Source: Muribaculaceae bacterium
Lineage (GTDB): Bacteria > Bacteroidota > Bacteroidia > Bacteroidales > Muribaculaceae
NCBI GenBank assembly: GCA_029057985.1
Contig: JAIDYR010000004.1
Span: 52,336-116,335 of the forward strand
Reading direction: 5' to 3'
DNA length: 64,000 nucleotides
Part shown: positions 46,748 to 47,402 of the stretch, piece after piece
Layout of the letters: each line of letters starts with the position of its first letter
Numbering within the stretch: position 1 is the stretch's first letter
Notes under the pieces: model-generated
Told to the model about the DNA's origin: nothing
The model's database searches: none
What the model saw: the letters and a program-made list of their open reading frames with translations, nothing else
Position numbers and translations under genes: made by a program

Positions 46748-46895
46748 CGGTGATGCCAATCGGACGTTATGAATCTCTATCAGGCGAAACAATCGCTTCC
46801 CCAATTTTCTACATTGCAATCAACATAATTCATAATCTTGTCGTATGCAGGTCGATTGCGGATTATATGTTCATGGTATCGTGATTGCCAACAAG

Positions 46896-46919
46896 GTAGG
46901 GACGCGATTCTTCGCGTCC
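46896..46919 (+). repeat. REP copy 2, inside the RAYT CDS, antisense to the gene
   Basis: GTAGGGACGCGATTCTTCGCGTCC on the plus strand; translated in RAYT as RTRRIASLP. Confidence 0.92.
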
Positions 46920-47178
46920 GCGCTTCTCTCGTAACACCGGCCTTGAACGCACCAATAATCGTGGCAAGTCGACTGTTATGATGATAGTCACCACATTCTT
47001 CCTCATGCATCGGAGGTTTCAGACAACCGATATTTCCGTGTTCTTCCACGGAGTCCTGATCCCCAATGCTTAATACAATATGCAGATGATTCGGCATTAC
47101 AACATGATTCAGAAGATTCACATCTTCATAATAAAGCGGTATATTTCTAATATTTTCTTCTATTAATTTGCCTAATTC

Positions 47179-47202
47179 GGACGCGAAGAATCGCGTCCCT
47201 AC
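47179..47202 (-). repeat. REP copy 3, inside the RAYT CDS, same strand as the gene
   Basis: GTAGGGACGCGATTCTTCGCGTCC on the minus strand; translated in RAYT as VGTRFFAS. Confidence 0.92.
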
Positions 47203-47402
47203 AATTCTTCCGAATGTATGACGCTTTTCATGCGCACAGATTGTGATAAAATATGTACCTTCACCATAATCGTGCCATTTTGCTCGAAATTGATGTCGGT
47301 CGGACATTTTTATTACTTTTTATGTTAATTTTGTCGGATACGACGGGATTTATCAGATGCGGTTGATCAAGTCCTCGAACAACTTGTTACTTTTGGACGG
47401 TC

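What the first reader, a model, noticed from the sequence alone, without database searches (positions are those of the whole stretch)
46780..47307. A RAYT transposase gene with two REP elements inside its own reading frame, both translated
Sequence: the 24-nt unit GTAGGGACGCGATTCTTCGCGTCC occurs exactly at 46896-46919 and 47179-47202 inside the 175-aa RAYT ORF, in opposite orientations. One copy is read as VGTRFFAS, the other as RTRRIASLP, and the ORF stays open. Established: RAYTs (Y1 HUH nucleases) recognise a REP hairpin with a 5' GTAG tetranucleotide. Inference: REPs have inserted into, or been retained within, tolerant loops of the transposase that mobilises them. This could give a substrate-within-gene feedback, for example mRNA hairpins or cleavage of the gene's own DNA.
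Basis: partly seen in the sequence, partly recalled or inferred. Interest (0 to 1): 0.85.

Follow-up and report, generated by a model that had tools for sequence, protein, structure and literature searches.

The report
Transposase gene carrying its own targets
A gut bacterium's REP-handling transposase gene really does contain two in-frame copies of the short DNA hairpin it is thought to cut; this was already reported for its subfamily, but comparing relatives shows that the internal copies change together with each gene's own hairpin, within limits set by the reading frame.

Summary
Four exact copies of GTAGGGACGCGATTCTTCGCGTCC lie at this locus: two flank a 175-aa RAYT (REP-associated tyrosine transposase) gene and two are inside it. 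The internal copies are translated in frame as VGTRFFAS and RTRRIASLP. The gene fits RAYT group 4 / TnpA-REP subclass 2.4, for which He et al. 2018 (PMC6006769) already reported frame-preserving REP insertions as a "remarkable and unique feature". The core claim is therefore prior art. Shared residues use identical codons 92% of the time inside REPs but 44% elsewhere, so the DNA element, not the peptide, is kept. What I did not find described: the upstream internal copy and site C are identical in 9 of 13 genes and one base apart in the rest; two of those four exceptions are explained because a match would place TGA in the site-C frame. One relative keeps an older REP with a broken GTAG foot, while its intact-foot copies carry a newer type. 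I infer RAYT-dependent rewriting of internal REPs, filtered by the reading frame. Self-regulatory feedback is untested.

The parts
46780..47307 (-). RAYT / TnpA-REP gene, 175 aa (HUH = H74-L-H76, W140-Q141, catalytic-position Y161)
   Evidence: NCBIfam NF047646 REP_Tyr_transpos E 3.8e-14 (49 of 49 aligned members match; the query's own 52.8 bits are under the curated cut-off of 80); Y1_Tnp PF01797 in 42 of 49 members but not in this protein; only solved relative by profile is 4er8 TnpA-REP; Foldseek top hits are IS200/IS605 TnpA and 4er8
47179..47202 (-). internal REP, site A, gene-sense, codon phase 0, encodes VGTRFFAS (residues 36-43)
   Evidence: exact match; lies between beta-1 and helix A in the model; decayed or absent in several relatives
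46896..46919 (+). internal REP, site C, antisense to the gene, encodes RTRRIASLP (residues 130-138), directly before the WQ GTAG-recognition segment
   Evidence: exact match; REPs at this site in 16 of the genes examined, all reversed, 15 of 16 in the same codon phase
47403..47426 (-). flanking REP, 95 nt upstream of the RAYT start codon, gene-sense
   Evidence: exact match
46724..46747 (-). flanking REP, 35 nt downstream of the RAYT stop codon, gene-sense
   Evidence: exact match
46978..47058 (-). variable segment after the HUH (residues 84-110), without a REP here but REP site B in many relatives
   Evidence: residues 84-110 have pLDDT under 50; site B carries + phase-0 REPs in relatives

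Best explanation
This is a REPtron: a group-4 (subclass 2.4) RAYT gene with its cognate GTAG REPs, two beside it and two inside its reading frame. The internal copies are real DNA elements that happen to be translated. Shown: in relatives the same sites, orientation and mostly the same codon phase hold different REP sequences, each close to that gene's other copies; DNA identity far exceeds protein-level need; a variant that would put a stop codon at site C is not found there. Inferred: the encoded Y1 nuclease cleaves and rejoins single-stranded REP hairpins at the GTAG foot, so copies at the locus, internal ones included, are replaced by the current cognate type. Insertions or rewrites that break the frame are lost with the gene, so only in-frame copies in variable segments survive. 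Copies that lose the foot stop being rewritten and decay as ordinary coding sequence.
For: Family membership and fold. Internal REPs in 47 of 139 distinct RAYT genes. Internal-to-flank REP identity averages 0.898 in 22 genes against a permuted mean of 0.565 and maximum of 0.664 in 1000 permutations. In 13 genes the upstream internal copy and site C are identical in 9 and one base apart in 4; permuted maximum of identical pairs 7, 0 of 5000 permutations as high in mean identity. Same residue, same codon: 601/652 inside REPs, 3803/8570 elsewhere. Peptide pairing FF-R/K 10 of 10, YI-C/Y 10 of 10, LI-L 9 of 12; FI (TTCA), which would read TGA at site C, is paired with R, L, K or F instead. REP-free relative L018 has KNREFYPS and MLGVTNTP at the two sites. 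L019 site A: GAAG foot with an old REP body, while sites B and C with GTAG feet carry the new type. Known biochemistry: E. coli TnpA-REP cleaves and recombines single-stranded REP, GTAG being crucial (PMC8266576).
Against: No direct evidence of cleavage by this protein. The foot-dependence argument rests on one clear fossil. The core-protein tree is poorly resolved: loop states change 13 and 11 times on it, but independent contrasts are too few (one for YI/CY, one supported for LI/L) to exclude shared ancestry as the cause of the loop agreement. The absence of TTCA at site C in that frame is a logical necessity for any intact gene, so it explains mismatches but does not prove rewriting. Other agents, such as recombination between 25-bp repeats, could also homogenise the copies.
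Confidence: 0.72

Rival explanations
1. The internal REPs are independent insertions of whichever REP is active in a genome, at hot spots that tolerate them, with no rewriting of resident copies.
For: Outside the close clade, the segment after the HUH and both termini hold REPs in several orientations and phases, which looks like repeated insertion. L031 site C shows a new REP beside half of an older one. REPs also entered a DNA methyltransferase gene in three genomes, two of them with a different REP type.
Against: At site C, 15 of 16 REPs share orientation and codon phase although several REP types are present and other phases are open.
Confidence: 0.35
2. The internal hairpins are kept by selection because they act in the mRNA or on the gene's own DNA, for example pairing of site A with site C or RAYT binding, giving self-regulation.
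For: Site A and site C can pair over 25 nt and the predicted RNA folds better than all 100 shuffles (z -4.9). Codon identity in REPs is far above the rest of the gene.
Against: The better folding follows automatically from containing inverted repeats. Site A is often absent or decayed in relatives (L016, L018, L031), and no intact internal REP was detected in most RAYTs examined (92 of 139). No expression data.
Confidence: 0.15
3. VGTRFFAS and RTRRIASLP are ordinary conserved protein segments and the flanking REPs derive from the gene.
For: At site A the REP-coded and REP-free versions have the same length and share a Phe and a Ser.
Against: Peptides change with the REP (VGAQYIAP, VGARYIAP, RAQCIAPLQ), a REP-free relative lacks them, synonymous positions are conserved far more inside REPs than outside, and the same REP family occurs in an unrelated gene.
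Confidence: 0.03
4. Homologous recombination (gene conversion) between the copies, not the RAYT, homogenises them.
For: Copies within a locus are identical over 24-25 nt.
Against: The shared stretch is very short and the flanks are unrelated; L019 site A, a perfect hairpin with a broken foot, was not converted while the intact-foot copies were.
Confidence: 0.2

Closest known systems
TnpA-REP subclass 2.4 (RAYT group 4 of Bertels), He et al. 2018, PMC6006769
   Same: Y1 HUH fold, NH-x-H and WQ motifs, HUH-to-Y distance about 86 (88 median published), long variable segment after the HUH, canonical GTAG REPs, REPs inserted in the gene without breaking the frame, Bacteroidetes.
   Different: Published insertions are 'generally' between HUH and Y; here one copy (site A) lies before the HUH. 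Turnover of internal REPs with the cognate REP and the stop-codon limit are not in the text that could be read (its supplement was not available).
E. coli TnpA-REP / RAYT (4er8; group 2, subclass 2.2)
   Same: Same fold and recognition segment; only solved structure matched by the family profile.
   Different: E. coli REPs are imperfect palindromes with a bulge (PMC8266576); a REP inside the E. coli gene is not described in the papers read.
Intragenic REPs and Rickettsia palindromic elements (Di Nocera et al. 2013, PMC3733652)
   Same: Short palindromes translated in frame inside protein genes.
   Different: In the passages read, the host genes are unrelated to the mobilising enzyme; here the host is the presumed mobiliser. 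The methyltransferase insertion in this genome is of that published kind.

Membership tests
RAYT / TnpA-REP | Y1 transposase fold with HUH and a single catalytic Tyr | tested here: met
   H74-L-H76, invariant Y161; Foldseek to IS200/IS605 TnpA and 4er8, E 3.5e-07 and 4.5e-07
RAYT / TnpA-REP | Match to the curated REP-associated tyrosine transposase model | tested here: inconclusive
   NF047646 matches with E 3.8e-14 but 52.8 bits, below the curated cut-off of 80; all 49 aligned members also match
RAYT / TnpA-REP | Gene flanked by GTAG REPs | tested here: met
   exact REPs 95 nt upstream and 35 nt downstream
RAYT / TnpA-REP | Binding and cleavage of single-stranded REP | not testable with these tools
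   needs purified protein
TnpA-REP subclass 2.4 | NH[IFV]H, WQ and YIxNNP motifs | tested here: inconclusive
   NHLH here (NHIH in most relatives), WQ met, YVDCNV (relatives YIDNNV) instead of YIxNNP
[quoted passage not shown]
   about 86 residues; residues 84-110 disordered and highly variable in length among relatives
TnpA-REP subclass 2.4 | REP sequences inserted in the gene with the frame kept | tested here: met
   two in this gene; internal REPs in 47 of 139 related genes
TnpA-REP subclass 2.4 | Placement in the published phylogeny | not tested
   the authors' alignment and profiles were not available
REPIN / amplified REP family | Many dispersed copies of the cognate REP in the genome | tested here: not met
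   nine copies within 3 mismatches in a 93%-complete draft, four of them at this locus

The most novel reading that the evidence does not exclude
The RAYT continually rewrites the REPs inside its own gene to match its current cognate REP, only where the GTAG foot is intact. The reading frame at site C, just before the GTAG-reading WQ segment, then acts as a filter on which REP sequences the system can adopt, and every REP change alters residues next to the recognition surface. Substrate and recogniser would be partly encoded by the same 24 bases.
Probability: 0.3. Interest if true: 0.75.

Novelty: new member of a known kind. Interest (0 to 1): 0.45.

Why it matters
How REPs are mobilised is poorly understood (PMC8266576). 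A gene in which the enzyme's presumed substrate is also part of its coding sequence leaves a readable record of substrate change: intact-foot copies follow the current REP, and a broken-foot copy keeps the old one. That makes foot-dependent rewriting testable by sequence alone in related strains, and offers a case where a mobile element's sequence is limited by its host gene's reading frame.

Tried and rejected
Ordinary coding sequence: rejected. Chance repeats: rejected. A known RNA family at the locus: no Rfam match. Pfam alone: no hit for this protein although most relatives hit Y1_Tnp. Single-sequence search of solved structures: nothing; the profile found 4er8. Proof of concerted loop change on a tree: attempted, but the tree is too poorly resolved and contrasts too few. 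Fine-scale occupied/empty pairs at the DNA level inside the gene: main-clade orthologues are mostly only about 70% identical, so borders of insertion cannot be fixed to the base. Whether the locus is a recent arrival: no RAYT lies within about 1.5 kb of the neighbouring TlpA-like gene in any of 29 genus loci, most of which keep that gene next to PNPase, but the other side could not be anchored and some loci reach contig ends, so only a one-sided empty site is shown.

Full report
WHAT IS THERE. The window holds four exact copies of GTAGGGACGCGATTCTTCGCGTCC, with none expected by chance. The minus-strand ORF 47307-46780 encodes 175 aa. Copy 47179-47202 is gene-sense and encodes VGTRFFAS (residues 36-43, 'site A'). 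Copy 46896-46919 is reversed and encodes RTRRIASLP (residues 130-138, 'site C'). The other two copies flank the gene at 95 nt upstream and 35 nt downstream. The single strand folds into an 8-bp hairpin with a free GTAG foot. In the draft genome this loop variant (TTCT) occurs only at this locus; five more copies elsewhere have TTCA or TTAA loops.

WHAT THE GENE IS. The protein and all its aligned relatives match the NCBIfam REP-associated tyrosine transposase model, though this protein scores below the model's curated cut-off (52.8 against 80 bits). The family profile finds one solved chain, 4er8, the REP-associated tyrosine transposase bound to a REP hairpin. The AlphaFold model (mean pLDDT 78, pTM 0.75) resembles IS200/IS605 and RAYT transposases. 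Motifs, HUH-to-Y spacing, the long variable segment after the HUH, and the GTAG REPs fit subclass 2.4 of He et al. 2018, which is Bertels group 4. One published motif, YIxNNP, is met only in part.

PRIOR ART. He et al. [quoted passage not shown] Di Nocera et al. 2013 (PMC3733652) describe REPs inside other genes. The supplement of the 2018 paper could not be read.

I collected 170 RAYT loci, 139 distinct. Forty-seven carry at least one REP inside the ORF. At site C, 16 genes carry a REP, always reversed and in 15 of 16 in the same codon phase, but of several sequence types: RTRRIASLP, RTRLIASLP, RTRCIASLP, RAQCIAPLQ, RARYIAPLQ, RARCIAPLQ, RAQNIAPLR. The REP-free relative L018 reads KNREFYPS and MLGVTNTP at sites A and C. 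Where two main-clade genes share a residue, the codon is identical in 601 of 652 cases inside REPs and 3803 of 8570 elsewhere. The refuter fails: what is conserved is DNA.

INTERNAL COPIES FOLLOW THE GENE'S OWN REP. In 22 genes with internal and flanking REPs, mean identity is 0.898 against 0.565 after permuting genes, maximum 0.664 in 1000 permutations. Inserting the local REP would by itself give this. In the close clade, with fixed sites, 13 genes have both an upstream internal copy and site C: nine pairs are identical over 24 nt and four differ by one loop base. The types compared include stem changes on both arms (GGACG...CGTCC against GGGCG...CGCCC).

A READING-FRAME LIMIT. In the upstream frame, loop TTCT reads FF, TTCA FI, TTAA LI and TACA YI. 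In the site-C frame the same loops read R, stop (TGA), L and C. In 57 proteins with both segments, FF pairs with R/K 10 of 10, YI with C/Y 10 of 10, LI with L 9 of 12, and FI with R, L, K or F. At the DNA level L017 has TTCA at site A and in its flank but TTCT at site C, and L114 has TTCA at site B but TTAA at site C. That a stop is never seen in an intact gene is a necessity and not a discovery; the point is that two of the four mismatches are explained by it. The window's gene has TTCT in all four places, which is compatible with every site.

FOSSILS. L019 keeps at site A the body GGACGCGATTCATCGCGTCC with a broken foot (GAAG), while sites B and C, with GTAG, carry GGGCGCAATACATTGCGCCC. L016 site A has GCAG and synonymous decay, and encodes AGTRFFAS. 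L031 site C has a new REP beside half of an older one. One clean case suggests that replacement needs the foot, the feature TnpA-REP reads; GTAG is crucial for cleavage in E. coli (PMC8266576).

MECHANISM. Most likely: the RAYT cleaves and joins single-stranded REP hairpins at the foot (shown for E. coli, not here), REPs enter variable segments of the gene, in-frame ones survive, and resident ones are exchanged for the current type (inferred). Site C lies between the helix and beta-strand that carry REP contacts in E. coli TnpA-REP, directly before W140-Q141, so REP change also changes residues near the recognition surface (inferred; no DNA complex was modelled). Self-regulation by the hairpins is possible; predicted mRNA folding is strong (z -4.9), but that follows from the inverted repeats.

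LIMITS. The core tree is poorly resolved and independent contrasts are too few to show that agreement between sites arose repeatedly. Loci were chosen by similarity to this protein and come mostly from draft genomes. Permutation tests ignore kinship.

VERDICT. A real and well-formed example of a published feature, with two further regularities (turnover with the cognate REP and the stop-codon limit) that I did not find described in the papers I could read.

Noticed in passing
L008/L214 (own genome C56:28424-28447), L215, L221: A REP lies in frame (RRDAINRV) inside a DNA methyltransferase gene (DPPYNTGND motif) of the same genome; two other family genomes carry a different REP-like sequence (GTAGGGACATCGC...) in the same frame at the same place, and 17 others show none there.
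   Followed up: partly
L016, L019, L021, L059, L126: RAYT genes of this clade lie just upstream of a methyltransferase gene of that kind, on the same strand, in five loci; reason unknown.
   Followed up: partly
L079, L103, L072, L070, L090: In another RAYT subfamily (RKxPRA type) REPs sit in an N-terminal extension in phase 0 (VGTHGSCVR, VGTHPGAS), several with a second one after the HUH; L090 has six in the N-terminal extension.
   Followed up: no
P0030, L118, L073: Variable segments next to internal REPs carry short tandem repeats (SIASANNG, TNDPAMQSR, RAQNIAEMPSHG), some of which look REP-derived.
   Followed up: no
window 46420-48770; L235-L263: The neighbouring TlpA-like gene and PNPase are linked across most of the genus loci examined, but none of 29 has a RAYT within about 1.5 kb, so this REPtron looks acquired here.
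   Followed up: partly
window 46722-46751, 47177-47206, 47401-47430: Three of the four copies end in CCGA and all four share the 3' G, so the mobile unit may be 25-26 nt.
   Followed up: no
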